From the NCBI RefSeq assembly GCF_026151205.1, contig NC_087073.1, positions 4,919,001-4,983,000 of the forward strand: a DNA stretch of 64,000 nt, read 5' to 3'. Shown one piece after another: positions 34,201-59,346 of this stretch. The notes beneath the pieces are model-generated. The model was not told the origin of the DNA. It saw only the letters and a list, made by a program, of their open reading frames with translations, and ran no database searches. The first letter of the stretch is position 1; every line of letters starts with the position of its first letter. The stretch comes from Bolinopsis microptera. Its lineage: Eukaryota > Ctenophora > Tentaculata > Lobata > Bolinopsidae. Position numbers and translations under genes: made by a program.

Positions 34201-37200
34201 TTAATAAAACAACAATGTTTGACATTCAGAAGAAGTGGGATAGTCACCTGACAGAGTAACTTCTGTTTGACAGCTCCAGCAGTGCTAGAGAACCCGTGAA
34301 TGGTGATCTCCTCGGTGCTATTAGGTTCAATAACCAACTTGTTGGGGCTCACTGTGAAGGTGGGACGTGGTGGGGCCGGCTCCTGGGGAAGCTGCAATGT
34401 TAGGTTTTAGTTTTGTGTTACTGGTCAGATGAAGTTTGGAGGAGTAATAATTAATGGAATTAACAGCTATGTAATATGAGCTAATTAAAAGAGTGACCAA
34501 GTTTACCTTGGCAAGTTTAACGTTATGCTTTTTGGTAGGTTTAATTCCATCTACAGTCCAATAAAGTACTTGTCGACGTTTGCCTTTGTTCTGCAGTTGG
34601 AACCTGAAATGAAGTTGAAAATTCACAAATAGTAAGAAAGCGAAATAGGGAACAAGAGAGTTGAAAAGTATAAACATTATGAACATTTCATGATAATAAC
34701 AGCTAACCTGTAGTAAACAGGTCTAGAAGAAAACAGAGGACCCAGATCCATGACAGGGCTAATCTCCGGAGAAGCCACGATGGTGGGACCTTGTCCGGCA
34801 GCCACCAGAGAGATAGAGTGACTGGAACTGTCCTCCACGAGAATTGTCAGATTGTCACTGAACCTCACGTTGTCACTTAAGTAGACTGACACGTCCAGTT
34901 CTAGTTTCTGTTGTGGTTCCAGTGTTCCAGTGCGGGGTGTCACTTTGTACGCTGGGTTCTGTAGAAACACATTTTACAGGTCAATATTATTGTTTATTTA
35001 ACTCATTAAGTTGATATAAAGTTGTGCATCTCATATAATACATGATCATACGTTTTGTGATGTTAAATTCCTGTCAAAGTGTTCAGAAGATACAATAACA
35101 ACTTACTGCACGTTCGAGAACACACTCAAAGTTAGCAGGAATGCTACTCTCGTTAGTGAGAACTAATGGCAGGGAGGTTCTCTTCAAGACACCAATCACT
35201 CCAAAGTCAATCTGAGGTGTGCTAATACTCAGTACAGGTCCCTCTCCCACACAGTATAAAGATAACTCCAGGGGAGACTGCTGTGAGCCAATAATCTTGA
35301 AGAATATAGACCTGTGAAGATCATCCAGTCTGGTTGCTTCAATAGTTATAGGCACTTCTATAGTGGAGTGAGGCTGGATTACACTCTTTGGACAGGAACT
35401 GGAGAATTTTATTCCGTTCTGATCTTCGCCCTCAGTGTCCAGGATCTCGTACTTAGCTGGGTGGTCGTCAGGGTTCTTGAGTATCGCTTTCAGAGTGTAG
35501 TGGTGGTGGATAAACGTCCTTTTGAAGTCTAGATCTTGTGTAGTCAATTCAATTGCAGGCACGATACATCTAAAAAGTGAATTGTTAGAACTGAAATACC
35601 CTGTACAGTGTACGTCTCCTATTATTTACTTGTGATATCGTGTAAGAGCATTTAAAGACTAGTATAGGGCACTTTCAAAAACTATGTTAACGAATCTGTC
35701 ACGGGAAAAATTTCAACTTCTAGAAGCTCTCATTTGGTGGATAAACTCAATATTTTGATTAAACTTTTTTTCAGCAGAGGATTTGCGATAGTTCAACTTT
35801 TACAAAAAGAATAAAATGTCTACTATGTCTATGAGCAGAGATACACGCATTTAAATCAGGGCTAATAATGGTGGATATACTTTTCAGAGGGGTTTGGTGG
35901 ATATATCATTTGTTGGCCTGTAACTTTACGTGTGGTTAATTTATGGTGATTATTTCTATATAGAAATAACGGAAACTAAAATGAACCATTATTTAAGTGT
36001 CAAAGCTTACGCTGAGCAACTTACTTAGCTGTAAGAGGAACTGATAGAATGGCCTCCCCAACCCCGTGAACATCCACCACGAGCTGTTTATCGTATCTGC
36101 CAATATTGGTCGGAACAAAGTCTACTTGGAGTCTCTGTTCGTGTCCCGGATTCAGGACACCCTCACACGGAGCTATATCGAACTCGTTTGCTCCACAATA
36201 ACCTTTCTTATCACCGGGCACGTGTTTCCCGTGCACATCATCCGGGATACGTATCCTATATCTCATCACGATATCAGAGGTGTTGGAGAGCGTGATTATC
36301 TTTGAGTTCACGAAACCGTAGCTGACATTTCCAAACTTGATACAGTTTGTGTCAAAGTGGAATGTTGGTCCGATCACGGTTCCATGTACACGTAGCGCCA
36401 ATGTGTCGGGTGCTCCTCTTATAGCAAACTTGAAAGTTTCCGTGAATGTTCCCAAAATGTGAGAAGAGAAAACTATCTTGATCAGTTGCAATTCTCCGAC
36501 TGCAATCTTTCCTTCGCTCGGGTAGAAGTTAAAGAGAGGGCCAAATATCGACTCCGGCTGTATCAAATTGAAATCGATCGGTATGTCACCTTTGTTCTCA
36601 AGTATAACTTCATACGAGTGTCGTGATCCGATGAAAACATTACCAATGTCGATCGAATCACAAGAGAATATGGCTTTAGGCCCCAAACCATCACCGACAA
36701 TCTTGAGTGGCAATCTCGTTTCTCTTCCAGTAATGTCACAATATGCCATTCGAGTGTAGTTTTGAGCTGCTTCTGGTTTGAACATGACTGTAATAGTGGT
36801 AGAAGAGTTGGGCCATATCTCTCCAGACATTGGCTCCAACACAATGATATCATCTGAGAAGAGCATGTTATCATCATTCACAGCGGACTTCTTGTTGTGA
36901 TACGATCTAGTTATCAGAGACATTTCATGTCTCTTAGTTGGGTTAATGATGCACTGGTTTATAAACGCCTGCATCTCGTCTTCCTCATCCTTTTCCAAGT
37001 CTGTAAAACACCTGGAATAAAACTTTATTGATGCTGAGGGTTTGGTATCACACTTGCACTCTTACTTCTTAACTTTGTGCATGGCCTAGCTCCAATAGCA
37101 GCATAATCATTTGTGTTACTGTTATAGTTATTTCAAATTCGCTGCAACTTGAATAAATTCACAGTACAAATTGCGTTTTTCATTAATCACCACCAAGATC

Positions 37201-38575
37201 GGTAGACAGGAACTAACAAGTTAACTTACACATCCTTTGTGTTGTGCTCTTCTGCAAGAGTTGCGAACTTCTTCCACTGATAGTGAACGACAATGTTGCT
37301 CCGGTTGTGAATGGTGATTGCCTTTTGAGTGGACATCGTTATGTACGTAGTCTCCAACTTCAGCATAGTCTTTTCCAGTCTGACATTAGCGTCTGTGGCA
37401 TTTCCACACAAGGCAATTGACACATCCTCACCTAAAATTATGTCACTATTTAATAATTTTAACAACAGCACGTTGTGATAAATTTGAAGAAACTGTCAGA
37501 AAGTTTATGATACAAAATAATGCTTCTAAAGTGAACAAATTCTCAAAATTAAATAGTTATGTAATTGTAAAGATGTTTACCTGTGTCGTATTGTAGGACC
37601 ATGTCTTGCATCTGAGAACCAGTAACAGATGGATTATAGCTGATGTGAACTTGCATGGATCCACCAATACCAAGAGATCCATGAGTTGGCTTCACAGAGT
37701 ATGGATCTGTAACCTTGAATGAGAACCTAGCTTCTCTGCTACCTACATTTCGTATCAGTAGAGTTTTTGTGGACTCGTGTTTCACAGGTTGTGTGCCAAA
37801 GTCAACAGTGTCAGGAAAATCAAGCACAGCCCTTGATCCCATACAATGTACTGGGACTAAAAACTTTTCCCTTTCAGTTGAAACTACTATCTCATGATAA
37901 TAGTCTTTTTGCTCAGTTGGCATAAACTTTATCGTGAAAGTGATATCAATTCCTGGAGCAACCTTTGCACTAGCATTTGGGGGTGTGATAATTTCAAAGT
38001 AAGGTGACTCGACTTGAGAAACTCTAACTGCTCTGGCAACTTTATCATTGTTTCGCAACGACAATGGAAGTTCATATGATTGGCAGGGAACAAATCTTTG
38101 AAAGTGGAGCTCAGAAGGGAATGGTTGAAACAGCGGCTCATCAATCGCTAATTGTGTATCTTTGATATTTGAAAAGGCTGATATGTCCAGTAGTTGGATT
38201 ATCTTGGGGAGACGCATATCCTTGGTCTGCAGCAACCTTTGGTCTGTGCTTAGAGATGTGATCTTGAAATAAGCAGATGGCTTTATCTGAAATAAGTTTA
38301 AGGTTATTCCAAACAACAAACAGTAAAGGTGAGATCTCATTTCATGTTTTATATTATAATATGAAATAGGCACAGGAAAAAAATTCTCCCATAAGCTTAT
38401 TGGTTTTAAGACAAAGTAACTACTACAATCTGCATGAAGAGAACCCTACGAGAAGAGCATTGAAGTGTGAAATAGATACCTTTTTCTTGCCATCTGAACC
38501 TCGAACAAGTGCTGGTCGAGTGCATAGTTGGCTTTTCTTTACCTCGGCAGGAGGTACGGGGTCAAATAATGACAT
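1..38575 (-). CDS. HYDIN: HYDIN, giant axonemal central-pair protein, 60 exons, 3' end outside window
   Basis: HYDIN is a microtubule-associated protein of the central-pair apparatus of motile cilia, built from many ASH/MSP-like beta-sandwich domains. I joined 60 minus-strand exons by GT-AG sites and phase. They give about 14.47 kb of coding sequence (about 4,825 residues) with no internal stop; vertebrate HYDIN is about 5,100 residues. Hallmarks matching the family as I know it include LFQPFPSE and LRNNDK near the start, ITIHNRSNI, a P-loop GPPLSGKT mid-protein, FGPLLCGK, and FFPLPDGTG near the end. The start is the ATG at 38575, followed by 32 codons and a good donor. The sequence runs off the left edge inside the segment that precedes the last few hundred residues. 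Three other genes lie in its introns. Exon coordinates are in the ten block entries that follow. Family assignment is very secure; a few splice sites are inferred. Confidence 0.96.
1596..1642. repeat. AT microsatellite
   Basis: An alternating TA run, interrupted by the imperfect triplet TAATATTAATA in the middle, makes a near-perfect self-complementary tract of about 45 bases. It lies within the HYDIN intron. Confidence 0.9.
2086..2213. mobile_element. Harbinger-like MITE, copy 1 (128 bp)
   Basis: The ends are GGGGTC at left and GACCCC at right. Each is flanked by the same trinucleotide TTA (2083-2085 and 2214-2216). A 3-bp TWA target duplication with GGG-starting terminal inverted repeats is the pattern of PIF/Harbinger elements. 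The interior has purine-rich tracts and an ATTACGCTAGTGTAA core. There is no coding capacity, so it is non-autonomous. Assignment to the superfamily is inference from ends and target site. Confidence 0.65.
2429..3736 (+). CDS. Orphan rhodopsin-like 7TM receptor 1, single exon
   Basis: A 435-residue intronless receptor that should sit in the plasma membrane and couple to G proteins; the ligand is unknown. A short N-terminus with one NTT sequon precedes seven hydrophobic segments: about residues 54-76 (TM1), 87-108 (TM2), 128-152 (TM3), 168-190 (TM4), 200-230 (TM5), 260-281 (TM6) and 292-315 (TM7). TM3 ends TRFFRV instead of DRY; TM7 has NPIIVTARN in place of NPxxY. A Cys in YPCKNK before TM3 fits the class A disulphide position. 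The 115-residue tail is basic with many Ser/Thr. It is nested in a HYDIN intron on the opposite strand. The start is the ATG at 2429; a five-codon upstream reading frame in the same frame (2411-2428) stops directly against it. Receptor 2 has similar TM3 and TM7 variants, so the two may be relatives. Confidence 0.87.
   Translation: MYINQFTVQEMLIFWKLVFIEDAPLYNKDFSAHLGESVPGNTTYVPTSTDRMINLIAGVVLMVCFVVSCTLNYVVYRFNKLKQSNITNFLFKSLSLVDLLTTVYAPWLYASLMFSSELYPCKNKLATFTRQLVCILGCTSQVITWMLAVTRFFRVILPFTMVCKKSVLIYIAGYSALMAVNSTCSLAVQMSGAEERGTMMSILVHTCFLLNLVHCSTGIITSVITSVYLLWCTYLQALTLQQTFQEHCNSSVSMIRQRMRSCVTILLMNIPYLTSICFIIYANAKPGQISFHDVLFGFLPILTSTLNPIIVTARNYEKIRMALLRPRRASKSRSYMRSIEDGMTDTSKVIISPRALKGKLSPVKGNTKSSVSPVTVKVSIKRQNIKRQNARKHIGYSVEMRPSPTLNRYTHDHTTTVSVKTTFRHKSSVREMMKF
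3737..4106. other. Receptor 1 downstream flank
   Basis: AT-rich; no gene seen. It should hold the 3' UTR of receptor 1. HYDIN exon 58 begins immediately to the right on the other strand. Confidence 0.5.
4990..5125. mobile_element. Degenerate relative of the MITE at 2.1 kb, inverted orientation
   Basis: Its reverse complement shares the ordered blocks of the 2086-2213 element: a TTTCC/GGAAAC block, ATTACGCTAG or its complement, TAGCTATGT, TAAAATTG/TAAAATGG, TTACGGA and a GGAGGGGGG tract. The ends have decayed. The two copies lie on either side of receptor 1. Confidence 0.5.
5742..5883. repeat. 142-bp direct repeat, copy A
   Basis: Reads identically to 6188-6329 by eye, offset 446 bases. It starts GATTAAGATTTGAAGAAC and ends CCAAGGTCATTG. 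A more diverged version of part of it (TTACTACCACTTTC) lies near 5510-5550, and the segments around 5400-5500 and 5600-5700 also resemble each other, so the whole 5.34-6.33 kb block has a history of duplication. Confidence 0.88.
5901..5968. repeat. 12-bp inverted repeat (hairpin)
   Basis: AAGTGGTGTCAA at 5901-5912 and its exact complement TTGACACCACTT at 5957-5968 enclose 44 AT-rich bases. It lies between the two copies of the 142-bp repeat. Confidence 0.7.
6188..6329. repeat. 142-bp direct repeat, copy B
   Basis: Second copy of the 5742-5883 sequence. The near-perfect identity suggests a recent duplication or gene conversion. Confidence 0.88.
6536..7549 (-). CDS. Orphan rhodopsin-like 7TM receptor 2, single exon
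   Basis: A 337-residue intronless receptor with a very short N-terminus (about 13 residues) and seven hydrophobic segments: roughly 14-35, 47-70, 97-120, 133-155, 175-205, 250-272 and 288-315. TM3 ends AISRFVQIKYPF, where SRF replaces DRY. TM7 has NPVVFLIF, keeping the NP of NPxxY but not the Tyr. Cysteines before TM3 (DKCAV) and in the second extracellular loop (NDCRW) could form the class A disulphide. The third intracellular loop is basic and there is almost no C-terminal tail. It starts at the ATG at 7549. It is nested on the same strand in HYDIN intron 57/58, so HYDIN pre-mRNA would carry it. Ligand and subfamily unknown. Confidence 0.85.
   Translation of the reverse strand: MSLLSQGGTSSPDFIIFLLVLTFGTLCVSLNLVMYLHNHFKPHCPATFLFRILALLDLLTGITQPVVVALHAFSTSPSELVFPGDPENLDKCAVSDRVLGCACLVLRFMPISVVGVLAISRFVQIKYPFSHVKRIYLVTPLALISVYTLAVSGYVSFHNDCRWNPYLLQPSIGILSSSVAISGAIMTFPSVILTVVSSFCSLLTIYELVKRGTQRESLRGAPVRSALRGIVVVPGGAPLKIARVSWRRSCFKIVAMNFTNISFMLHYLILINTVSTDGIHGNISDVSNFIVLFGTCTLQPLETSLVNPVVFLIFAGNPLSNIFRKLPRGMSYFSSRG
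7550..8697. other. HYDIN intron 57/58, part upstream of receptor 2
   Basis: AT-rich. I found no HYDIN exon and no other gene. It must contain the promoter of receptor 2 if that gene is transcribed independently. Confidence 0.55.
8698..12922 (-). CDS. HYDIN: HYDIN exons 49-57
   Basis: Exons: 12624-12922, 12286-12485, 11896-12068, 11507-11717, 10891-11121, 10355-10723, 9790-10053, 8937-9329, 8698-8812. Recognisable blocks include LKKHAVERCHIINNEETPF (51), VDIIFEPHAEGLFNYNLIV (52), HHNFGPCFLYQPGMSHQKTT (54), KVVNFGALQIGETCTRTVSL (55), MYNTGDIGARFRWD (56) and LTLHNKTGTLWTLGPVIEGE (57). Exon 57 looks as if it ends in a stop at 8687, but the donor at 8697 and the homologous exons 58-60 far downstream show the reading frame continues. 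The intron before exon 49 holds the RT fragment. Confidence 0.95.
13052..14478. mobile_element. 1.43-kb insertion with 20-bp terminal inverted repeats in a HYDIN intron
   Basis: ATACCTTACGAGACATATTT at 13052-13071 is exactly complementary to 14459-14478. The match continues outward imperfectly (CGAATATT against TGAATATT). Just inside each end is a diverged direct repeat of about 63 bases that starts GGTGACCTAAAT and ends TTTCGTACC (about 13096-13160 and 14394-14453). Between them lies an RT fragment. The arrangement looks composite: a TIR element that captured, or was invaded by, a retrotransposon piece. Confidence 0.6.
13562..14348 (+). pseudogene. Non-LTR reverse transcriptase, C-terminal fragment with frameshift
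   Basis: The first frame (13562-14032) begins in the catalytic region with HCFADDIALIAD (the xADD metal-binding box). It continues with KMNEGKTKF, DFTYLGSRI and LVESVLLYGSETWTMT, the usual order in non-LTR retrotransposons of the endonuclease-reverse-transcriptase type. The second frame (13986-14348) supplies the C-terminus (RRLRLAGHAHQH, then NRGRPCLTLLDNLKAD). The two overlap in different frames, so there is a frameshift near 14.0 kb. The N-terminal RT and endonuclease are missing. It is on the strand opposite HYDIN and is surely inactive. Confidence 0.85.
14585..18836 (-). CDS. HYDIN: HYDIN exons 40-48
   Basis: Exons: 18600-18836, 18149-18384, 17654-18024, 17240-17359, 16925-17110, 16505-16720, 16150-16406, 14985-15826, 14585-14810. 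Exon 41 has VNFGPMIINIKKQRQFLIEN and exon 42 has FGMFYLYPASGTI. Exon 47 is the longest (842 bases): an ASH repeat (AVHLNFGDCAINELHQM), a Lys/Glu-rich stretch, and a second repeat (IFSNTLMFQSRVF). Exon 48 has FMIEPTSGHVLVGQQQEF. Two acceptors are soft. Exon 42 needs the AG at 18025, which has a weak pyrimidine tract. Exon 44 needs the AG before 17110 to keep phase with exon 43. Everything else is in phase. Confidence 0.92.
19152..19249. repeat. Inverted repeat arm A (flanks WD40 exon 1)
   Basis: From TTACCGGGGTAAGCACAG to AGCCCCCTAC followed by an AAGAAGAAG tract, this matches the reverse complement of 19608-19700 with few mismatches. Each arm also contains its own small inverted repeat (GTGGTCA and TGACCAC). 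Confidence 0.8.
19477..21284 (+). CDS. WD40-repeat protein nested in HYDIN
   Basis: Exons: 19477-19515, 19764 to about 20566 or 20620, and 20783-21284. The product is 447 or 465 residues. Exon 1 gives MEHKHRRKTPKVQ before a GTGAGT donor. Exon 2 carries about six WD40-type blades: LRIWDFEE, GTLLVLDIDDL, IAYVYDVN, SCILWDLR, DVHVYDLG and a final GHTAWPNQV blade. Exon 3 has a helical segment (ASAKEKALRFSQLDL) then a long acidic Asp/Glu/Lys stretch. The obvious donor at 20626 (AG|GTAAGG) puts exon 3 out of frame and meets a stop. A donor at 20567 (GTATTC) or 20621 (GTCAGG) keeps frame, so this junction is unresolved. The polyadenylation signal overlaps the stop codon. I do not recognise the orthologue. 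WD40 propellers usually act as binding scaffolds. Confidence 0.85.
19608..19700. repeat. Inverted repeat arm B (inside WD40 intron 1)
   Basis: Reverse-complement partner of 19152-19249. Exon 1 of the WD40 gene sits in the loop between the arms, so the pre-mRNA could fold around it. Confidence 0.8.
21280..21285 (+). promoter_or_regulatory. Polyadenylation signal of the WD40 gene, overlapping its stop codon
   Basis: AATAAA starts two bases before the TAA stop (21282-21284). Cleavage 10-30 bases downstream would fall inside HYDIN exon 39, whose 3' boundary is 21293, giving a short antisense overlap. Confidence 0.6.
21293..24465 (-). CDS. HYDIN: HYDIN exons 34-39
   Basis: Exons: 24375-24465, 22736-22947, 22377-22536, 21982-22154, 21640-21838, 21293-21492. 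Exon 34 has RWVIAPNSDITLRLRF. Exon 35 has MLNFETVGTRQRYTL, FPQISTDPKMVF and TYEFGPLLCGKNRDR, one of the most recognisable HYDIN stretches. Exon 36 continues YPENMEKFNVVNTSPF. Exon 38 has TLLPVAWRVNGMENLG. Exon 39 ends GRYEIGF before a GTAAGT donor. The intron between exons 34 and 35 (22948-24374) carries the SINE. Exon 39's donor lies 8 bases from the stop codon of the convergent WD40 gene. Confidence 0.95.
23291..23714 (+). mobile_element. tRNA-derived SINE
   Basis: The head has an A box TAACGCAGTTGG (23301-23312) and a B box GAGTTCGAATCC (23344-23355) spaced as in a tRNA, with a TTTGTAA anticodon-like loop. A roughly 300-base tRNA-unrelated body follows, then a tail of ATAAG repeats (about 23689-23714). 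These are the hallmarks of a SINE transcribed by RNA polymerase III. It lies in the HYDIN intron between exons 35 and 34, antisense to HYDIN. I see only one copy in this window and could not delimit a target duplication. Confidence 0.8.
24615..26790 (-). CDS. HYDIN: HYDIN exons 27-33 (coiled coil, then low-complexity region)
   Basis: Exons: 26678-26790, 26423-26528, 26162-26292, 25757-26010, 25488-25573, 25022-25350, 24615-24854. Exon 27 is a charged coiled coil (RIRREQEQAEQDKIKEEEE). Exons 28 and 29 are Ala/Pro/Lys/Ser-rich. Exon 30 recovers an ordered helix (RIEKLLHRFQVYDGANDEL). Exon 31 is basic. Exon 32 has LPTVEEILDALGLGPNGPPI and HFVFVASSSDDV, which look conserved. Exon 33 is Lys/Pro/Ser/Thr-rich. 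Phases 2, 0, 2, 1, 0, 2, 2 join cleanly. These short exons are the least certain, because low complexity hides homology, but all give open frame. Confidence 0.87.
26957..29028 (-). CDS. HYDIN: HYDIN exons 21-26 (central P-loop / kinase-like region)
   Basis: Exons: 28864-29028, 28498-28658, 28171-28378 (or ending 28183), 27578-27764, 27267-27431, 26957-27098. Exon 22 encodes LNVIITGPPLSGKT, a Walker A P-loop. Exon 23 continues with a helical EISTAYNAAIIELDSVIYDA segment. Exon 24 is Ala/Pro-rich. Exon 25 has LKWSDCQNGIVFDGL and LKALGNRPYIYTVDL, strongly HYDIN-like. Exon 26 is charged coiled coil (YLSEDEYDALEEEEK). Vertebrate HYDIN also has a nucleotide-binding-like segment at this position, so the P-loop is a family trait; whether it binds nucleotide is unknown to me. 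Exon 23 has two in-frame donors 12 bases apart. Confidence 0.92.
29173..31936 (-). CDS. HYDIN: HYDIN exons 15-20 (ASH repeats and linker)
   Basis: Exons: 31353-31936, 30972-31230, 30558-30752, 30258-30407, 29484-29723, 29173-29371. Exon 15 begins HYDQIAVAEIELFNEG and includes GVFPRIKLDLPRY. Exon 16 has YFLDFGHVVAGNTCSQTL. Exon 17 (65 codons) has DLFVSSDTLDFGDVKCGEC, a clear ASH boundary. Exon 18 has FQLIPSSGHLLPGQRKNVQV. Exon 19 has TMTVMGHGMEPKLDF. Exon 20 is acidic, Pro-rich linker. Exons 17 and 18 were placed from splice sites and phase, because they sit in short open frames. Confidence 0.93.
32084..33149 (-). CDS. HYDIN: HYDIN exons 12-14 (Thr/Ser-rich linker, then ASH repeat)
   Basis: Exons: 32719-33149, 32436-32552, 32084-32293. 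Exon 12 joins exon 11 in phase 1 at an AG before EFSTPYPTVTHF. It encodes 143 codons of low-complexity sequence rich in Thr, Ser, Asn, His and Cys, unlike the beta-sandwich repeats around it, and ends in an acidic stretch (EVDILEEK). Exon 13 is acidic (SDLEEGYISEIEEKK). Exon 14 returns to ordered HYDIN sequence (FDILPLHGTIEPGDSQTLQFSFYG), ending FINFGEV. The intron after exon 12 contains the 25-base G run. I infer that exons 12 and 13 are a disordered insertion; transcript support would settle exon 12's acceptor. Confidence 0.86.
32669..32693 (+). repeat. Run of 25 G in a HYDIN intron
   Basis: A pure G tract flanked by CGGTC and GACCG arms, in the intron between exons 13 and 12. On the transcribed HYDIN RNA it is a C run. 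Length may be affected by sequencing. Confidence 0.9.
33277..34958 (-). CDS. HYDIN: HYDIN exons 6-11 (ASH repeats)
   Basis: Exons: 34708-34958, 34507-34603, 34248-34391, 34018-34134, 33693-33863, 33277-33562. Exons 9 and 10 contain no long open frame of their own. I found them by the phase-0 acceptors and donors and by continuity: exon 9 is 39 codons starting ALIGKSTSKE, and exon 10 is 57 codons containing LPLTVKLMLNYPF. Exon 11 carries YINLMGEVVFPNLKFE and IDFGCILNDTEMSKYVTV, a typical ASH pattern of a buried strand followed by DFG and a variable turn. The phases are consistent throughout. Confidence 0.93.
35107..38575 (-). CDS. HYDIN: HYDIN exons 1-5 (N-terminal ASH domains)
   Basis: Exons: 38480-38575, 37581-38286, 37230-37431, 36025-37011, 35107-35569. 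Exon 1 opens with MSLFDPVPPAE. Exon 2 carries the most conserved N-terminal block (FQPFPSELHFQRF, then SLRNNDKVAR) and a TEREKF strand. Exon 3 has TITIHNRSNIVVHYQW, a HYDIN signature. Exon 4 (329 codons) has several ASH repeats with FGNV-type strands. Exon 5 holds a further repeat ending DFGVIGVLKRTSLPL. Phases 0, 1, 2, 2, 0 connect without stops. The N-terminal ASH domains are where the family is most conserved. Confidence 0.95.
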
Positions 38576-41325: not shown

Positions 41326-44138
41326 TCATTTTGGATGTGTGGACCCTAGGGTAGACTTGGTGTCAAAATTTAAATTAGAGCATTCGAAATCTTTGTTTGT
41401 CCAATCAAGATCAGCATGGTTATGCTGGTTGAAGAGCAGTGATTGCTTCATCCTAGACTTCAGGCAGGCCACACTCAGACAGTAGTCACGTATACCAAGC
41501 TTAGGCACAATTACGTTCCAAATACGAGTCGTTCTGCTATTGAAGTTGTCAGGGGGGTCTGCTTGGCTTAGTATAAGGGTGGGTTTCCTACTTGAGCAGG
41601 TGAAATTTTCATGGAGGGAAATCGGAGCACGGAATTTCATGATTTTATAGAGCTCAAGAAAACAGTGGCAACTGTACAGGTTTTGGACGGCAAGTATTCC
41701 GTGTTCCTTGAACAAAGGTTTGGTGTGCTCTTTCAAGAAAAATTTTTTGTTCAGATTTTGGTTTTCAAACGGTCGAGCACGAGCACAGGTCTTAAATTTA
41801 TCTAGGTATGCCTCCCTGTCGCCAAACAGTACCCTGAGACAATATTTTTGCGCTTTGAATACAGAACTTATATGAGTGTTGGCTGCCCCACCCCAAACCG
41901 TGATACAATAGGAGAGGTGTGATTCAAATAGAGTGTAATACAACTGGCGGTGTAAGAAATCTGGGAGGGAGCAGCGTAGGCGGCAGAGAGTTGATGTTGC
42001 ATGGCTGAGAGAACGCCTAAGTGATTTTATGTGTTCTTCCCAGGTCAGCTTTTCGTCGATGACGACTCCCAGAAACTTAGCAGATGCAACTTGTTTTATT
42101 GGAAAGTTATCAATGGTTAGGGTATATTCAGAATTATTGTCAGTCTGGGAGGACGATGCTGGTTTAAAGTGAATGAAACAGCATTTAGACATGTTGACAT
42201 GGAGTTTGTTTGCTCGCATGTAGGAAGATAAACTAGCTAAAAGAGAATTACCACGCATATGTGCCTCCTTTTTAGATTTCCCAGTCACAAATATATTGGT
42301 GTCATCAGCGAAGGTGAAAAATGATCCCAGACTGGAGCAGTTGGCGATATCATTCATATATAGGAGAAATAAGAGAGGTCCGAGAATCGAACCCTGGGGG
42401 ACTCCAAACTGTATTTTCAAGGCGTCAGATTTCTCACCAACCACTTCAGTATATTGTGATCTATTTGTTAAGTAACTTTTTATAAGATTATTTGCCACCC
42501 CACGTATCCCATAGCCCTGTAATTTTACAAGTAATGTACCATGATCTATTGTATCAAAAGCTTTGCTAAGGTCTATGAATATGCCTAAGACATGATGCTT
42601 AAGTTTTAGAGATTCAGTTATAAGGTTTACTGAGTAATTAACTGCATGTGAAGTAGAGTGTGACTGCCTGAAGCCAAATTGTGATTTAGATATTATACCC
42701 TGTGAGCTAACAAACGAATATATTCTTGAGTAAATGATCTTTTCAAAGATTTTACCAAATATAGAGAGAGTAGAGATTGGGCGGTAGTTTTCTATCTCTT
42801 CAGGGTTTCCCTTCTTAAATACAGGAGTTATTCTACCAGTCTTTAGAACGTCGGGGAACGTGCCATTGGACATTAAGATGTTGATGTATCGACTAAGGAT
42901 CGGTGTAATTACGTGAGATGATCTTTTGATTACACTAACAGGAATATCACTTGCTTTTCCATTTTATCTCATTAGGTGTACAGTCTTCTAACATAATCGA
43001 TTTTTCATTTTTCTTTCCAAGGAAATCATAGAATGTTTTTATAGGGAGAATTGGTAAACCAGAGGCCTCACTGCTACTAAGTGTTTCATTGAGCTTAGGG
43101 GCAATAGAAACAAAGTAAGAGTTGAATCCATTGGCTATGACTCTACGATTCATGATTCGTTCGTTGTTTATGATAAAGGGAGGCTTAGTTTGCTTCTTTT
43201 TCTTGCCCCTGAGCTCATTGATTATCTGCCACGTTTTTTTGCTGTTTTCTATGTTTTTATAGATTTCATTGCAGTAGTACGATCGTTTGGCGACCTTGAT
43301 AATACTTTTAAGCATTCTTCGGTAGTCACTGAAGACTTTATAGAGCAGTACATTACCCTCAGGGTTTCTATTTGTTACAGTGCTTGACCAGTCTCTACAG
43401 AGTTCATGTTTTCTTTCAACTGAGACAATGATTCCATCGGTAATCCACGGTTGAGTTTGGGAGTCCTTTTGGTAACTTTTGGCTCATCAAGCTTACAGTG
43501 TTTATCAAGTGTTTCATTGAAGCAGTCCAAAAACTCATTGAAGTTTACCGAAGGAGTCAAGTCATTCACCTTCACCTCGAGTTCATTAACAAAATTAGTG
43601 AGTTTGGACCTTGAATAATCATAGTAGCGAACATGTTTAAGTTTTTCAGTACTGTTTTCGGTAGGAATTGACGTGAAGGTGAATATAAAGGCATGGTCAC
43701 CAATCCTATCATTCAATACACCGGAGAGAAGTACATGATCTATCTCTGATGTGAGGATATTGTCAATACATGAGTTTTTACAGTTAGGACGGAAGTGGGT
43801 AGCAAGTGATATAGTAGGATACATATTGTTACGAAGTAACGTGTCCTCAAATAGCTGGCTGGAGGTTTGTACATTGAGGAGGTTAGAGTTAAAATCGCCA
43901 AGAATATGGAACTTTTTACCAGACAACTGCTTAGATATATCCTCAAGAGTTTGACAAAAGGTCTCACTACAGCCATTTGGAGGACGATAAGCAACCCCAT
44001 ATGTCAGTTTGTCACCCGAGCTAAGAGTAATTTCAACAAATAAGCACTCAATATCTTTAGTGCAGTGAGATAGATTTTCGATTACTACAGCATTCAGGCG
44101 ATCAGAGACATATAAGGATACTCCTGTTCCTTTTTTCT
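41326..44138 (-). pseudogene. LINE ORF2: endonuclease remainder and reverse transcriptase
   Basis: The frame 44138-43375 starts inside the endonuclease with KKKGTGVSLYVSD and has FHILGDFNSNL (catalytic Asp/Asn), CIDNILTS and GDHAFIF, the closing His motif of AP-type endonucleases. The linker frame lies at 43315-42947. The RT frame ending at 41326 has ITPVFKKGNPEEIENYRPIS, SKAFDTIDH, GVPQGSILGPLLFLLYMNDI and FADDTNIF, i.e. the fingers, the conserved GVPQGS box and the xADD active site, then a thumb region. Single-base frameshifts separate the frames near 43.38 and 42.96 kb (reading continues as RDWSSTVTNRNPEGN and ASDIPVSVIKRS). The upstream part of the endonuclease is beyond the insertion. 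Confidence 0.9.
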
Positions 44139-44146
44139 TATCAGGG
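44139..44146. other. Target-site duplication, left copy
   Basis: TATCAGGG directly before the left TIR of the 5-kb element; identical to 49179-49186. Confidence 0.85.
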
Positions 44147-44365
44147 TAAGGTTTTTTTTTTACATATTTGATAGATTTACAGATCTGGCTTGACAAAAAT
44201 TTTCAGAAAAAATCATGTTCGCGGGAAGCAAAAATCTGATGAGTTTTTTAGGGGGGAGGGGTAGGGGGTTGAGGGGGGTTGAGAAGGGTTGTCACATGAC
44301 GAGAAATTTTTTGCAAAAATTAAACGATCTTTATTTGTTGATATTATTCACCCCTGTTGCCTAGA

Positions 44366-47300
44366 GTGGTGGGTCTGCACTTGAGAAGAGTGGGTCTGGC
44401 CGCTAGAATGGTGGGTCTGCAATCTAGAAGTGGGTCTGGCAACCAGAATGATGGGTCTGTACCCTTAAAGAGTGGTCTGACAACCAGAGTGGTGGGTGTG
44501 CACTTGAGAATAGTGGGTCTGGCAGCTAGAATGGTGGGTATGCAATCTATAAGTGGGTCTGTTAACCAGAATTGTGGGTCTACACCCTTGAAGATTGGGT
44601 CTGACAACCAGAATGGTGGGTCTGCACTTGAGAAGAGTGGTTCTTGCGGCTGGAATGGTGGGTCTGCAATCTAGAAGTTGGTCTAGCAACCAGAATTGTG
44701 GATCTGCATTCGAGAATAATGAGTCTTCACTCTAGAAGAGTGGGTCTGACAACCAGAATGGTGGGTCTGCACTTGAGAAGAGTGGGTCTGGCGGCTGGAA
44801 TGGTGGGTCTGCAATCTAGAAGTTGGTCTAGCAACAGAATTGTGGATCTGCATTCGAGAATAATGAGTCTTCACTCTAGAAGAGTGGGTCCGGCAACCAG
44901 AGTGGTGGGTCTGCACTTGAGAAGCGTGGGTCTGGCCGCTAAATAGTGAGTCTGCACCCTTTAAGAGTGGGTCTGACAACCAGAGTGGTGGATCTGGACT
45001 TGAGAAGAGTGGGTCTGGCAGCTGGAATGGTGGGTCTACAATCTAGAAGTTGGTCTGGCAACCAGAATGGTGGGTGTACGTACACCCTTGAAGAGTGGGT
45101 CTGACAACCCGAGTGGTGGGTCTGGACTTGAGAACAGTGGGTCTGGCAGCTGGAATGGTGGGTATGCAATCTAGAAGTTGGTCTAGCAACCAGAATGGTG
45201 GGTGTACGTACACCCTTGAAGAGTGGGTCTGACAACCAGAGTGGTGGGTCTGCACCCTTGTAGAGTGGGTCTGACAACCAGGGTGGTGGGTCTACACTTG
45301 AGAAGAGTTGGTCTGGCAGCTAGAATGGTGGGTCTGCGATCTAAAAGTGGGTCTTGCAACCAGAATGGTGGGTTTGCATTCTTGAAGTGTGGGTCTGACA
45401 ACCAGTGTGGTGGGTCTGCACTTGAGAAGAGTGGGTCTGGCAGCTAGAATGGTGGGTCTGCAATCTAGAAGTGGGTCTGGCAGTTAGAATGGTGGGTCTG
45501 CAATCTAGACGTGGGTCTGGCAAGATGAATGGTGGGTCTGCACACTTCAGGCTTAAAGATTGGGTCTGACAACCAGAGTGGTAGATCTGCACTTGATAAG
45601 TGTGGGTCTGGCAGCTGGAATGGTGGGTCTGCAATCTAGAAGTTGGTCTGGCAACCAGAATGGTGGGTCTGCACCCTTCAGGCTTCAAGAGTGGGTCTGA
45701 CAACCAGAGTGGTGGGTCTGGACTTGAGAAGAGTGGGTCTGGCAGCTGAAATGGTGTGTCTGCAATCTAGAAGTTGGTCTGGCAACCAGAATGGTGGGTG
45801 TACGTACACCCTTGAAGAGTGAGTCTGACAACCCGAGTGGTGGGTCTACACTTGAGAAGAGTTGGTCTGGCGGCTAGAATGGTAGGTCTGCGATCTAAAA
45901 GTGGGTCTTGCAGCCAGAATGGTGGATCTGCACTTGAGAAGAGTGGGTCTGTCAGCTAGAATAGTGGGTCTGAAATCTAGAAGTGGGTCTTGCAACATGA
46001 ATGTGGGTCTGCACCCTTGAAGAGTGGGTCTGGCAATCACAATGGTACGTCTACACTCTAGAAGAGTGGGTCTGGCAACCAGAATGGTGGATTTTCGCCC
46101 TAGAAGGGTGAGTCTGGAAACCAGAAAGGTGGGTCTACAATCTGAAATAGTGGGTCTGGCAACCAGAATTGCGGGTCTGCATTCTAGAATAGTGGATCTT
46201 CACTCTAGAAGAGTGGGCCTGGCAACCAGAATGGTAAGTCTACACTCTGTCAACCAGATTTGGGGGTCTATAAACTAGAATATAGGAGATATGGCTACCA
46301 GAATTGTGGGTTTGGACAACCCGAATTGTGGGTCTTCACTCTAGAATAATAGGTATGGTGGGTCTACACTTTAGAAGAGTGGGTCTGGCAACTAGATTGG
46401 TGTGTCTGCAATCTATAAGAGTGGGTCTGGCAACCAGAATAGTGGGTCTGCAATCAAGGGAATCAAGATGAGTGAGTCTGGCAATCAGAATGGTGGGTCT
46501 GCACCTTAGGGTAGTGGGTCTGGAAACAAGAATGGTGGGTCAGAATTCTTGAATATTGGGTCTTCACTCTAGCTAAGAGTGGGTCTGGCAACAAGAATGG
46601 TGGGTAAGAATTCTAGAATAGTGGGTCTTCACTCTAGAAGAGTGGGTCTGGCAACCAGAATGGTAAGTCTTCACTCTGTCAACCAGATTTGGGGGTCTAT
46701 AAACTAGAATAAAGGAGATATGGCTACCAGAATTGTGGGTTTGGACAACCCGAATGGTGGGTCTTCACTCTAGAATAATAGGTATGGTGGGTCTACACTT
46801 TAGAAGAGTGGGTCTGGCAACTAGATTGGTGTGTCTGCAATCTATAAGAGTGGGTCTGGCAACCAGAATAGTGGGTCTGCAATCAAGGGAATCAAGATGA
46901 GTGAGTCTGGCAATCAGAATGATGGGTCTGCACCTTAGGGTAGTGGGTCTGGAAACAAGAATGGTGGGTCAGAATTCTTGAACATTGGGTCTTCACTCTA
47001 GCTAAGAGTGGGTCTGGCAACAAGAATGGTGGGTAAGAATTCTAGAATAGTGGGTCTTCACTCTAGAAGAGTGGGTCTGGCAACCAGAATGGTAAGTCTA
47101 CACTCTGTCAAGTGTCAACCAGAATTGGGGGTCTAAACTAGAATATATGATATATGGCAACCAGAATTGTGCGTCTGGAGTCTAGAGTCTAGAATAGTGG
47201 GTCCGGCAACCCGAAAGGTGGGTCTTCACTCAAGAATAGTGGGTCTGGCAATCGGAATGGTGCGTCTACACTCTAGAACAGTGGGGCTGGCAACCAGAAT

Positions 47301-47600
47301 GATAAATCTTCGCCTTAGAAGAGTGGGTCTGGCAACCAGAATGGTAGGTCTGCATTTTAGAATAGTGGGTCTTGACTCTATACCTACTAGAAGAGTGGGT
47401 CTCCTCTCTAGAAGAGTGAATCTGGCAACCAGAATGGTAATTCTTCACTCTGTCAACCAGAATTGGGGGTCTATGAACTAGAATATAGGAGATATGACAA
47501 CCAGAATTGTGGGTCTGGACTCTAGAATAGTGGGTCTGGCAACCAAAATGTTGAGTCTGCACTCTAATAGAGTGGGTCTGGCAACTAGAATGCAGACACG
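44366..47600. repeat. Tandem array 1, ~21-bp GTGGGTCTG units
   Basis: The motif GTGGGTCTG followed by about 12 variable bases (most often GCAACCAGAATG, CACTTGAGAAGA, CAATCTAGAA or CACCCTTGAAGA) recurs every 19-23 bases for about 3.2 kb. The variants cycle in a roughly regular order, so there is a higher-order structure of about four to six units. The open frames across it are a by-product of unit lengths near multiples of three and are not genes. Confidence 0.95.
46240..47097. repeat. 429-bp higher-order repeat, two copies, within array 1
   Basis: The block containing GGCTACCAGAATTGTGGG (46293) recurs at 46722, exactly 429 bases on. It includes unusual variants (GGGAATCAAGATGAGTGAG, TAGAATAATAGGTATGG) in the same order and differs at only a few positions. 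Confidence 0.88.
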
Positions 47601-47810
47601 TAGCCAAGGCGAAGACCCCCGGAAAAAAATTGAACCCCAAAAAAAATAAGCCCCCTAGTCCCCATGGTCGCCTGGTAAGTGGGCTGTGTTTATGACTGTT
47701 TGATTAAACGACACGATTAGATCGACTTTAGCATTTCGTAAATTATTCCCAAATCCCACTATACAATATGTACTTATTCCATTCATGTGACAAGTACTGA
47801 GTTCCCCCCT
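47600..47810. other. Unique spacer between the two arrays
   Basis: About 200 bases without repeat units, including AAAAAAATAAGCCCCC; no gene seen. Confidence 0.6.
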
Positions 47811-48945
47811 AGCCCCCAACTTTGTATTATTGTGATGTCTGAAATTACAAATTTCTATTGCCAAATGTCGTCTGAAACACCCTATTTCTCAAAAATTTTC
47901 CGGGGGCTGCACCCCCAACTTTGTATTATCGCCGTCCTACAAATTTCTTTAATGCCTAATGTCGTCTAAAACAAATAATTTCTAAAAATTTTCTTGGGGG
48001 CTGCGCCCCCCCCCCCCCCAGTCCCCCAACTTTATATTATTGTGATGTCTGATTATTACTGCGCCCCCCCCCAGCCCACCAACCTTGTATTATTGTAATG
48101 TTTGATTATTGCTGTCCCACAAATGTCGTCTGGAACACCCTATTTCTCAAAAAGTTTCCGAAGGCCAGGGCTGCGCCTGCCTAGCCCTCCAACTTTGTAT
48201 TATTGTGAGGTCTGATTATAATTACTGTCCTACAAATTTCTTTAATGCCAAATGTCGTCTAAAACACATAATTTCTCAAAAATTTTCTGATTGGCTGCGC
48301 CCCCCCCTCCCTAGCCAACCAACTTTATATTATTGTGATGTCTCAGGATTATTACTGCCCTACTAATTTCTTTAATGCCTAATGTCGTCTGAATCACCCT
48401 ATTTCTCAAAAATTGTCCGGGGGGTGCGCCCCCCTAGCCTACCAACTTTGTATTATTGTGATGTCTGATTATTACTGTCCTACAAATTTCTTTAATGCCA
48501 AATGTCTTCTAAAACACATTATTTCTCAAAAATTTTCTGGGGGGCTGCGCCTCCCCCCCCCCCGGCCCCCCAGCCCCCCAACTTTATATTATTGTGATGT
48601 CTGATTATTACTGTCCCCAAATTTCTTTAATGCCAAATGTCGTCTGAATCACCCTATTTCTCAAAAATTTTCCGGGGGTTGCGCCCCCCAGCCCACCAAC
48701 CTTGTATTATTGTAATGTCTGATTATTGCTGTCCTACAAATGTCGTCTGGAACACCCTATTTCTCAAAAATTTTCCGAAGGCCAGGGCTGCGCCCCCTAG
48801 CCCCCCAACTTTGTATTATTGTGATGTCTGATTATTACTGTCCTACAAATTTCTTTAATGCCAAATGTCGTCTAAAACACATAATTTCTCAACAATTTTC
48901 TGGGGGGCTGCGCCTTCCCCCCTCCTTAGCCAACCAAAGGAGCTT
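47811..48945. repeat. Tandem array 2, ~100-135-bp units
   Basis: About nine to ten units. Each has the order: AACTTTGTATTATTGTGATG, TCTGATTATTACTGTCCTAC, AAATTTCTTTAATGCCAAAT, GTCGTCTAAAACAC, ATTTCTCAAAAATTTTC, then GGGGGCTGCGCCCCCC and a C-rich CCAGCCCACC. The GC-rich GGGGGCTGCGCCCCC part is itself a palindrome. Some units are shortened. It shares no motif with array 1. Confidence 0.92.
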
Positions 48946-49178
48946 CGCCCCGGCTACGTGTCGAGTCGGGCTACGTGCCCAGAATCGAAAAAACTTAATC
49001 TTTTAATGAATAACGGAACCTTCATTATGAAGTTACGAGATGATAATATAATTGGGAGGCAAAGTGGGTATCGGGCTTGGGGCTCATAATGCGCAAAATT
49101 TGGCCGCTGTCGAGTGGGTCTGCCTAAAATTCACAGATCTAGCTATGGGTCTGAGACATTTGTAAAAAAAAAACCTTA

Positions 49179-49186
49179 TATCAGGG
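49179..49186. other. Target-site duplication, right copy
   Basis: TATCAGGG directly after the right TIR of the 5-kb element. Confidence 0.85.
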
Positions 49187-56800: not shown

Positions 56801-59346
56801 CCTAAGTAGATGTCCCCTAACACCTCCAGGCTCCATCACAAGAACAATCTAAACAATTTATTCCCTTTGAATAAATATTACATGTAATTACATATCTATT
56901 TCAACTCCAACACAAATTGAACAGCGTGTATATAATCAAACAGACACACGATTTCCCGATAAGATAGAGTTTTCTTAAAATTAAATTCACATATAAACGT
57001 TCCTGCTGGCTATGTCTTATTTATTGTGTCACGGTTGCATCGTTATCTTCCGCAATTCCACTTAAAATGACACATACGCTAGTCCTTGTTCTTCCCAACT
57101 TTGTCCGCAGAGGTCCTAGGATCAATTTTTCAACGAACTCTCCAAAGCTCTTTAACGATATCATGTAGATAAAGAAGTTAGACATGCCGTTGAGGAAGGG
57201 AATGAAGAAGGCAAACCTGGTATAAAACACGAAGAAGAATCCTTGTGTGTTCCTGTTCATATTCGGGTAGAATTTTGTAATAATGGTCTGGTTTAGTGCG
57301 TGAGGTCCGAAGGAGAGGAGGTAAGCTAATCCTATGTAGATAGAAGTAAAAGCGCCTTGCACCGTAACAGTTCCTCTCTTCCTGTGAATGAAAATCAGCA
57401 GAGCAATCGTGGTGACGAAGACGATGAAGCTAGGGATAACTATAATGCAAGCCACGAGCAGAGGGTGAACCCACCTCCAAACAGGAGCTCTGTGGAAAAA
57501 GTGACATCTGTATAACCTGTAATCGAACGTGACACTGGTTTTGTCAACGCAAAGCTGTACTATGGGAATAATACAGGCAATGACCCAAATTACAACAGCA
57601 ATACAGTTAGCCGCCCTTTTACTCCAGTCAATGGACCAAAAAGGAAAAGCAAGGCACGCCAGCTTACTCATGTGCAGGGCACAGATGAGAAGCAAAGCTG
57701 AAGTGAACACCAGAGGGTAGAGATAGTGTTGAATGTAGCAGAACATGTCACCGAATACCCATTTGTCTGCAATCAGAGACACAAGAGTAGGTAGGATGGT
57801 GCTGAGTGCCATCAGGATGTCACTCACCGCAATGTTCTGTATCAGAGTCACACTCACTTTATCCAGTGTTATTGCTTTGTACCGGACGGTGGCCAGCAGA
57901 ATGAACAAGTTCCCGATCAGATTAACAGTGAGAGCTAGGGAGGACCAAGTGATTAGTACATACCTTTCAGCTTTAGTCTTACAGGCGTAAAGAGTGTGGT
58001 TCGAGAGAGAAGTGGCTATCACTTATATCGGTTGATCTCAGCAAAAATAATAGTAAATAATGGTGATTTCAGCCATTTTTATACGGTGCCAATATCCATC
58101 GTTCGTAAAGATATTTAATTTGTCTGAAAATGAATTTATAGTAGTTCTGCCGAACAATTTGCGTAACATAATGACAAATTAGATAGATTTCAGTCTACTC
58201 AAATCAGTCAAAATTGCTCAAAGTATAATAGGTTTGGGTACCCCCAGTTTGAAGTAAATTAGTCAAATCACTAATAGGATGAAAAATGCTCTTAACAATT
58301 TATATTAAATGTGCTTTATCGAGTCTCTGACCTATATTTTGATGGAAGAGACTGTAACGCGTTACATGACACGGTCTCTGGTCATAGCTTATAGAATATA
58401 GATCATATTACATAACGTGATGCGTGACGCGAGTAAAACCCCGATTTACCGCGGAGTTTGGGAAAAGTTCCGAAAAGGAAATGGCCGCGGTAAATCGAGG
58501 TTTGCGGCAAATCGGGGTGCAGTATATCGGGGTTTTACTGTAGTAGGGTGTAGTATGGAGAATGTTCTAGTAAATCAGAAATTACAAATATTGGGAGTAT
58601 TAACCAAATGTATTCACTCAAACTTCTTGAACAGATGATTCCATAGTTTTCTTCATAGCTTTTGACAGCTCAGAGGCGTTAATCTGAGAGTTGGGGTTGC
58701 TGCTGTGAAAACTGCACCGGGAGGAAACGAAACTGCAGTTTACTTATAGTTGCCTAGCTCTTTAGGTTTTGCCCTTACCAATGCTACAAATACAGCTACT
58801 ACTTAGATCTATAATTAATTGTGTTTCATTTGTTCGCAATCTGACCACTTTTGTATAATAATATACAGTTTCAATTCTGCTTGGTTTCGCTTCTGTTTTT
58901 TTGTAAGTTTATATATACGTGTTGTATATGCAATTTTTAGTTTAATCTTCAGAAGGAGTAGTTTCTTGAGCAAATAACAGATGTTCAAATGAGTTCAGTT
59001 TTTGGTTCTTAGATTACCGGCGTAGAAAGAGCAAAGAAGTGGCAGATCATATCTTTTAAAACTTTTTCCGGATAAAACAAATAATCTTTCAAGCTATGTT
59101 TAATACTTTTTCCTTTCAGCTCACATGTAGTGTTCGGTCACGTGATCGAAGGAGAAAGGTATTTGGACCAGATAGAGCTAATGGGGGTAGATACGGAGCA
59201 CAAACCGTTTGCAGATATCCGTATAGCAGACTGTGGAATGGTTTCAGGATACGGTAGAGAGGAGAGTCCTGTATCTCTGCCAGTAGTGGTGGTGCCTGCC
59301 CCGGTTGCTCTACCGATCCCGTCACTTGCACCTCCAGTTGCTACTG
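53855..59346 (+). CDS. Cyclophilin domain exons 1-5
   Basis: Residues 1 to about 170 form the catalytic domain: [35 protein letters not shown] (containing the active-site Arg, Phe, Met and Gln), [18 protein letters not shown], and [16 protein letters not shown]. The ligand-pocket Trp of CypA is His here (SHVVFG), as in PPIG-type cyclophilins, which usually lowers cyclosporin affinity. Exon 1 has two in-frame donors: after 53984 (GTGATC), giving the standard CTGEKG, or after 53990 (GTGAGT), adding Asp-Arg. Exon 5 ends in a Pro/Val-rich linker. Confidence 0.92.

What the first reader, a model, noticed from the sequence alone, without database searches (positions are those of the whole stretch)
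44147..49178. A 5-kb TIR element made almost only of satellite DNA, inserted in a LINE endonuclease
Perfect 18-bp inverted termini (TAAGG, ten T, ACA), an exact 8-bp duplication (TATCAGGG), and an empty-site frame that rejoins to give QVPFPDKKKGTGV show that this 5,032-bp block moved as a unit. Its content is two unrelated tandem arrays and no gene. Satellite arrays carried between transposon termini would spread, or be seeded, by transposition. The homopolymer-containing TIR fits no superfamily terminus I know.
Basis: partly seen in the sequence, partly recalled or inferred. Interest (0 to 1): 0.9.

Follow-up and report, generated by a model that had tools for sequence, protein, structure and literature searches.

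The report
Jumping element filled with home-grown repeats
This 5-kb block is a gene-less jumping DNA element, one of about fifty very similar copies in its animal genome, whose two long repeat arrays most likely grew inside the element from short ancestors and are carried to new places when it jumps.

Summary
It is a real transposon family: 59 genome-wide matches to a right subterminal 22-mer against 2 for the control, and exact 8-bp duplications in 37 of 44 copies with both TIRs found (47 looked at). No transposase was recognised in the copies read.

Corrections. The TIR begins TAAGG, which fits the hAT terminus as I recall it. The arrays look home-grown, not captured: all 40 scored candidates of each array-only search lie in copies of the element. 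Array 1 traces to 200-325-bp MITEs with 2-6 copies of a 21-bp unit sharing 11 bp with the right end; array 2 is a roughly 130-bp piece amplified inside a nested MITE. Intermediates persist. Two pairs of copies 99.7% identical outside gaps, at different targets, show arrays spreading by transposition.

Not shown: the transposase (no partner at 36 hAT-domain loci examined) or any array function. Transposons with internal tandem repeats are known; the double, nested array and preserved growth series are the new part.

The parts
44147..49178 (+). non-autonomous TIR transposon, 5,032 bp (main subfamily copy)
44139..44146 (.). left target-site duplication TATCAGGG
49179..49186 (.). right target-site duplication TATCAGGG
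44147..44164 (+). left terminal inverted repeat TAAGGTTTTTTTTTTACA
49161..49178 (-). right terminal inverted repeat
44147..44362 (+). left end, conserved among copies
44363..47594 (+). array 1: 42-bp unit made of two 21-bp half-units with GTGGGTCTG core, about 77 units
47593..48979 (+). nested MITE with CAG(A/G)CACGTAGCC / GGCTACGTG(C) ends, of a family common in the genome
   Evidence: boundaries read
47806..48923 (+). array 2: roughly 130-bp segment of the nested MITE amplified in tandem (10 BLAST pieces)
48980..49178 (+). right end; holds GAGTGGGTCTG (49112-49122) and GGGTCTG (49147-49153), the core motif of array 1
43375..44146 (-). host LINE frame interrupted by the element (weak match to endonuclease PF14529)
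41326..42873 (-). reverse transcriptase of the same host LINE

Best explanation
A recently amplified, non-autonomous cut-and-paste DNA transposon, most likely moved in trans by a hAT transposase. Its bulk is two tandem arrays that grew inside it. Array 1 expanded from a cluster of 2-6 inverted 21-bp units in 200-325-bp MITE ancestors; the unit core GAGTGGGTCTG also sits in the right subterminal region. The array block was then inverted, a CAGGCACGTAGCC-type MITE inserted beside it, and a roughly 130-bp piece of that MITE was amplified into array 2. One such compound element then spread to about fifty places, carrying both arrays; afterwards units were gained or lost by slippage or unequal exchange. 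SHOWN: ends, TSDs, empty site, family, conserved layout, copies with few units, array inheritance, unit-sized copy differences. INFERRED: order and direction of events, the transposase and its superfamily, the expansion mechanism.
For: TIR and TSD at many sites; empty LINE site 3 of 3. Layout L-A1-A2-R in one strand sense in the full-length main copies fetched. Star-like ends: 46 singleton against 2 shared variable columns in 12 copies, mean pairwise divergence 2.0% (range 0.2-5.0%), as expected of a burst from one master. C5:12631753 and C9:7642014 are 99.75% identical outside gaps and differ by one gap of 15 bp or more, of 119 bp (about one array-2 unit), with different TSDs CCTTGTAC and CTCTTCAG. 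Gap sizes 42, 63, 429 and 116-131 recur between copies. GTGGGTCTG (up to 1 mismatch, both strands summed): 4, 8, 5, 8 in the four short MITEs, 2 in array-less L119, 27 and 39 in L029 and L118, 68-117 in 8 main copies. Half-units at exact 21-bp spacing in L152; the 21-bp block GTTAAATAGTGGGTCTGGCAA opens array 1 in L029 and L118 but is reverse-complemented in L152 and L154; it is absent from L151 and the window, and L153 was not tested. 11-bp match of unit and right end: 1, 0 and 2 of 300 shuffles reach it for window, L119 and L029. Array-2 unit: one match each in L029 and L118, partial matches in all 8 free nested MITEs fetched (one place each, two pieces in L121), 10 pieces in the window copy. 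The nested-MITE end matches 672 times with up to 1 mismatch against 19 for control; 6 of 8 fetched copies have exact 8-bp TSDs.
Against: No transposase-bearing relative found: none of 16 hAT-domain loci fetched over 6 kb shows a TAAGGTTTT / AAAACCTTA pair (three have a lone match: L104, L108, L112), nor do 20 others checked 1.5 kb downstream show the family's right end. Seven of 44 TSD pairs are not exact. The target bias (T at position 2 / A at 7, symmetrised 36 of 74, p = 0.0014) is modest; avoidance of T at position 1 (4 of 74, p = 1.7e-7) is stronger and is not a hAT rule that I know. L119 (494 bp, no array) may be a deletion product rather than an ancestor; no tree was built, and the direction of evolution is read from a handful of copies (L029, L118, L119, L151-L154).
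Confidence: 0.83

Rival explanations
1. The element captured pre-existing genomic satellites between its ends and now disperses them.
For: Element content is almost all tandem repeat; capture of a pre-existing tandem repeat is proposed for the Xenopus MITE miDNA4 (PMC12628747, passages read).
Against: All 40 scored candidate regions in each of the array-only searches lie in copies of the element; short MITEs already carry 2-6 units; unit 2 occurs singly in L029 and L118.
Confidence: 0.1
2. Same kind of element, but moved by a transposase of another superfamily with 8-bp duplications, such as P, Merlin or KDZ.
For: 8-bp TSD alone does not decide; the recalled P target GTCCGGAC also has T2 and A7; Galileo, of the P superfamily, has internal repeats with extra transposase-binding sites (PMC4079207, passages read).
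Against: TAAGG termini fit the recalled hAT rule, and 4 of 16 hAT-domain loci of this genome gave candidate ends of that form; the P terminus that I recall (CATG) does not match. No search for P, Merlin or KDZ transposases was run.
Confidence: 0.22
3. The TIRs are a chance meeting of poly-T and poly-A tracts.
For: Loose matches to the 18-mer occur by chance in shuffles.
Against: 82 pattern hits against 1 control, 37 of 44 exact TSDs, empty site 3 of 3.
Confidence: 0.01

Closest known systems
Tetris and TIR-220, Drosophila virilis (PMC4079207; passages read)
   Same: Non-autonomous TIR element with internal tandem repeats that share sequence with the element's own terminal domain; 8-10-bp TSDs; no autonomous copy found by its authors, who suggest the Mutator superfamily.
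   Different: Repeats lie inside long TIRs of a foldback element with three complete copies and also form longer satellite-like arrays; here TIRs are 18 bp, arrays are internal and single-sided, right ends number just under 60 and no free array was seen.
Xenopus miDNA4 and Xstir MITEs (reviewed in PMC9659126 and PMC12628747; passages read)
   Same: MITEs with an internal satellite monomer or a variable array that moves with the element.
   Different: miDNA4 is a Tc1/mariner MITE; no second array inside a nested MITE is mentioned in the passages read.
Helentron elements carrying satellite-like repeats in oyster (PMC7492417; search listing with abstract start only)
   Same: Dispersed short arrays carried by non-autonomous mobile elements.
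   Different: Helentrons lack TIRs and 8-bp TSDs (recalled); another transposition mechanism.
hAT MITEs such as Mar (PMC3517528; passages read)
   Same: Short TIRs, 8-bp TSDs, no coding capacity, assigned by TIR and TSD before a relative was found.
   Different: 610 bp, no tandem arrays in the passages read; Mar TSD consensus nnnTAnnn.
Tandem-repeat MITEs of the clam Donax trunculus (title seen in a reference list; paper not held)
   Same: By title, MITEs containing tandem repeats.
   Different: Not read.

Membership tests
hAT superfamily (non-autonomous member) | 8-bp target-site duplication | tested here: met
   37 of 44 exact, 47 looked at; of the short relatives, L152 and L154 exact, L153 one mismatch, L119 one mismatch, L151 not scorable (right TIR degraded)
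hAT superfamily (non-autonomous member) | terminus (C/T)A(A/G)NG (consensus recalled) | tested here: met
   TAAGG at both ends; 4 of 16 hAT-domain loci of this genome (L104, L110, L114, L116) gave candidate TIR pairs of this form with exact 8-bp repeats; L103 gave CTTAG; the other 11 gave none or weak AT-rich or low-match pairs
hAT superfamily (non-autonomous member) | target preference nTnnnnAn (Hermes; PMC10368747 and PMC2803484, passages) | tested here: inconclusive
   symmetrised T2/A7 36 of 74 against 0.304 expected, p = 0.0014, but the recalled P target shares it, and other biases are stronger
hAT superfamily (non-autonomous member) | relative with hAT transposase and the same ends | tested here: inconclusive
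   none at 16 + 20 hAT-domain loci examined, of 150 scored matches and 366 first-look candidates
MITE / non-autonomous element with internal tandem repeats | TIR and TSD at many sites, no transposase gene, internal tandem array | tested here: met
   frames of copies; Pfam on five frames of inserted blocks gave only a reverse transcriptase
P superfamily | P-type terminus (recalled CATG...) and transposase | tested here: inconclusive
   terminus TAAGG does not match the recalled P end; no P transposase search was run
free satellite DNA | array exists outside the element as its own locus | tested here: inconclusive
   40 of 40 scored candidate regions of each array inside copies; 52 and 348 first-look candidates not scored, and only the first 150 or so matches of 513 and 246 were listed

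The most novel reading that the evidence does not exclude
Array 1 is a satellite of transposase-binding sites. Its unit core GAGTGGGTCTG is a subterminal motif that recurs, pointing inward, near both ends of the short MITEs, at 21-bp (two-turn) spacing on the left. Multiplying it to about 70-120 copies would recruit transposase from an unrelated autonomous element and could explain why the long-array form reached about fifty copies while array-poor forms stayed at a handful: selection for mobility building a satellite.
Probability: 0.22. Interest if true: 0.75.

Novelty: new variant of a known kind. Interest (0 to 1): 0.5.

Why it matters
How satellites are born and spread is usually inferred from end states. 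Here one genome keeps a series from MITEs with 2-6 units, through two copies with 27-39 core motifs and one unit of the second repeat, to a burst of compound elements with both arrays expanded. This makes two questions testable: whether arrays inside transposons grow during transposition or between jumps, and whether repeating a subterminal motif raises mobility. It also shows that dispersed arrays in an assembly need not be relics of centromeric or heterochromatic satellite.

Tried and rejected
Autonomous partner: the 1.9-6.4-kb extra blocks in six odd-sized copies (L031, L032, L034-L037) were listed for ORFs; Pfam on five of their frames found only a reverse transcriptase, in L036 (PF00078, 6.2e-29), and nothing for a 259-aa and a 115-aa frame in L034 or the 407-aa and 157-aa frames in L036; the repetitive frames of L032 and the short ones of L037 were not scanned. 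In nine further copies (L029, L030, L098-L101, L128-L130) the longest stop-to-stop frame is 246 codons and was not scanned. 16 hAT-domain loci (6 kb each) and 20 downstream stretches (1.5 kb) gave no matching pair of ends; a lead in L138, L143 and L107 (TTTACCTTAAAT near the domain end) was not a matching terminus.

Selection on the array core: core columns are more conserved than the rest in the window array (0.888 against 0.782, third of 42 shifts) but ranked 13th in L118 and 15th in L029, so the test does not support constraint. Left end: no significant match to the unit (264 of 300 shuffles reach it).

Species: a STING family search found nothing, uninformative because the controls were silent too. 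Size and karyotype fit the comb jelly Bolinopsis microptera: 264.65 Mb, with contigs C1-C13 summing to about 258 Mb (97.5%, my sum of lengths), against 265 Mb and 13 chromosomes (PMC11797021, passages) and 97.23% in 13 scaffolds (PMC10232365, passages); contig counts differ (232 against 346). Inference only.

Literature: searches listed no paper whose title or abstract start describes this element or comb-jelly satellites of this kind. Only listings were seen except for the papers cited as passages; only open-licence papers are held.

Full report
What was checked. The block 44147-49178 is 5,032 bp, begins TAAGGTTTTTTTTTTACA, ends with its perfect reverse complement, and is flanked by TATCAGGG on both sides. 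The window is G000:C2:4919001-4983000 of a 264.65-Mb genome.

It is a mobile element. A 301-base query over the left end found copies at 40 of 40 scored candidates (125 in the first look), 97-100% identical; the right end gave 40 of 40 scored (108 in the first look), 96-100% identical. Apart from the window's own match, these stop within about ten bases of the TIR tip, most at it or 1-3 bases away. The pattern TAAGGTTTTTTTTTNACA has 82 matches and the reversed control 1. I looked at the ends of 47 copies, the window's included: 44 had both TIRs by my regular expression and 37 of these have exact 8-bp duplications; the other seven are shifted or degraded. Three gave no TIR on one side, one of them (L031) because its left end was outside the fetched stretch. 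The uninterrupted LINE site is present in 3 of 3 fetched LINE copies; the natural frame of one of them contains QVPFPDKKKGTGV. A 22-mer of the right subterminal region occurs 59 times with up to 3 mismatches (51 exact, 7 with one, 1 with two) against 2 control hits, which sets the family at just under 60 right ends in this assembly.

Anatomy. Main copies have a left end of about 216 bp, array 1, array 2 and a right end of about 240 bp (measured from the end of array 2, so counting the nested MITE's tail), in that order and on one strand. Eight whole main copies are 3,338-5,412 bp long. Larger ones, up to 11.9 kb, contain later insertions, among them a LINE with a reverse transcriptase (L036) and blocks with TIR-like ends (L032, L034), often with short direct repeats at their borders. 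No ORF of 150 aa or more lies within the window copy; the one that touches it is the interrupted LINE frame, overlapping its first 50 bases.

Where the arrays come from. (a) Array 1. A search with the right end of an older copy (L029) and the subterminal 22-mer turned up relatives with far fewer repeats: L119 (494 bp, no array, TSD with one mismatch) and the MITEs L151 (about 240 bp, right TIR degraded), L152 (324 bp, TSD CTTCATGG), L153 (203 bp, TSD with one mismatch) and L154 (321 bp, TSD CATTGAGC). Two further new hits, L155 and L156, are partial copies that match only the right end. L152 carries six half-units at exactly 21-bp spacing. In the short MITEs they point opposite to those of the long forms, and the 21-base block GTTAAATAGTGGGTCTGGCAA, which opens array 1 in L029 and L118, occurs reverse-complemented in L152 and L154: the block was inverted between the two forms. 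Core motifs (GTGGGTCTG, up to one mismatch, both strands) number 4, 8, 5 and 8 in L151-L154, 2 in L119, 27 in L029, 39 in L118 and 68-117 in the 8 main copies. The unit shares GAGTGGGTCTG with the right subterminal region, in the array-less L119 too; 1, 0 and 2 of 300 dinucleotide shuffles reach this length for the window, L119 and L029.

(b) Array 2. It lies inside a nested element whose ends CAGGCACGTAGCCAGG match 672 times in the genome with up to one mismatch (control 19); among the 100 places listed several form inverted pairs a few hundred bases apart. Of eight such pairs fetched, six show exact 8-bp duplications and two imperfect ones. The roughly 130-bp unit matches once in L029 and once in L118, matches each free MITE partially at one place (two pieces in L121), and matches ten times in the window copy. 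A stricter 24-base motif of the unit was found in L029, L118 and the window copy but in none of the eight free MITEs, so only part of the unit (mostly its positions 39-121) is shared with them.

How it spread. In 12 copies the joined ends differ by 2.0% on average (0.2-5.0%), with 46 singleton and 2 shared variable columns, a star pattern expected of a burst from one source. Two copies on different chromosomes with different TSDs are 99.75% identical outside gaps and differ by one gap of 15 bp or more, of 119 bp; another such pair is 99.69% identical with gaps of 42, 42, 730 and 255. So arrays are inherited through transposition and then change, often by whole units. In the two array-only searches the 40 scored candidate regions each (of 92 and 388 first-look candidates) all lie in copies of the element by my comparison of coordinates; for two of them (array 1) and four (array 2) only one end of the copy was located, and only the first 150 or so of 513 and 246 matches were listed.

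Mechanism and superfamily. The ends, 8-bp duplications and precise insertion mean cut-and-paste transposition by an enzyme supplied in trans. I favour hAT: 8-bp TSD; TAAGG fits the recalled hAT end, and 4 of 16 hAT-domain loci of this genome gave candidate TIR pairs of that form with exact 8-bp repeats, while one (L103) gave CTTAG; and T2/A7 is enriched in the duplications (36 of 74, p = 0.0014), though avoidance of T at position 1 is stronger (4 of 74) and the recalled P-element target shares T2/A7. No partner was found at 36 hAT-domain loci examined out of 150 scored matches and 366 first-look candidates. hAT transposases use short repeated subterminal sites: Hermes BED domains bind AAGT motifs, correcting the earlier GTGGC (PMC10368747, passages), and Herves binds CG/AATTCAT (PMC3143072, passages). 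Internal repeats with extra transposase sites are described for Galileo and proposed for Tetris (PMC4079207, passages). Array 1 may be such a multiplied site. Against this, core columns are hardly more conserved than the rest in L118 and L029 and clearly so only in the window copy, the left end lacks the motif apart from the array, and no transposase is known.

Placement. Non-autonomous transposons with internal tandem repeats are a known kind (PMC9659126, PMC12628747, PMC4079207; passages read). What I did not see in the listings is an element with two independently grown arrays, the second inside a nested MITE, with short-array relatives and intermediates kept in the same genome. Only open-licence papers were searched. 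The genome's size and thirteen large contigs fit the comb jelly Bolinopsis microptera, which is inference.

Noticed in passing
G000:C1:12492896-12493391 and G000:C3:20099850-20099927: The end sequence CAGGCACGTAGCCAGG of the nested MITE family is itself tandemly repeated: 14 exact copies in one direction every 34-43 bp, and three at 31-bp spacing. A MITE terminus turned into an array.
   Followed up: no
G000:C5:12631753-12640664: Two copies of the element lie within 9 kb in opposite orientation, tail to tail; the second has a left TIR and array 2, but no right end was located for it.
   Followed up: no
L036:1105-3645 and 4036-5259: A LINE with an 846-aa reverse-transcriptase frame (PF00078) and a 407-aa frame without a Pfam match sits inside array 2 of one copy; arrays serve as landing sites for other elements.
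   Followed up: partly
L118:1-1516 and 1856-2949: Two strong simple arrays (ACCCAGCT repeats and a 13-bp unit TACCTAGAGTACC) lie beside the older copy near the start of contig C9.
   Followed up: no
window 35083-38373 (-): Three frames with HYDIN/CFAP65-type Ig-like domains (PF22544, best 1.7e-35), probably parts of a large ciliary gene.
   Followed up: partly
window 57021-58022 (-): Rhodopsin-family 7TM receptor frame (PF00001, 5.1e-12).
   Followed up: no
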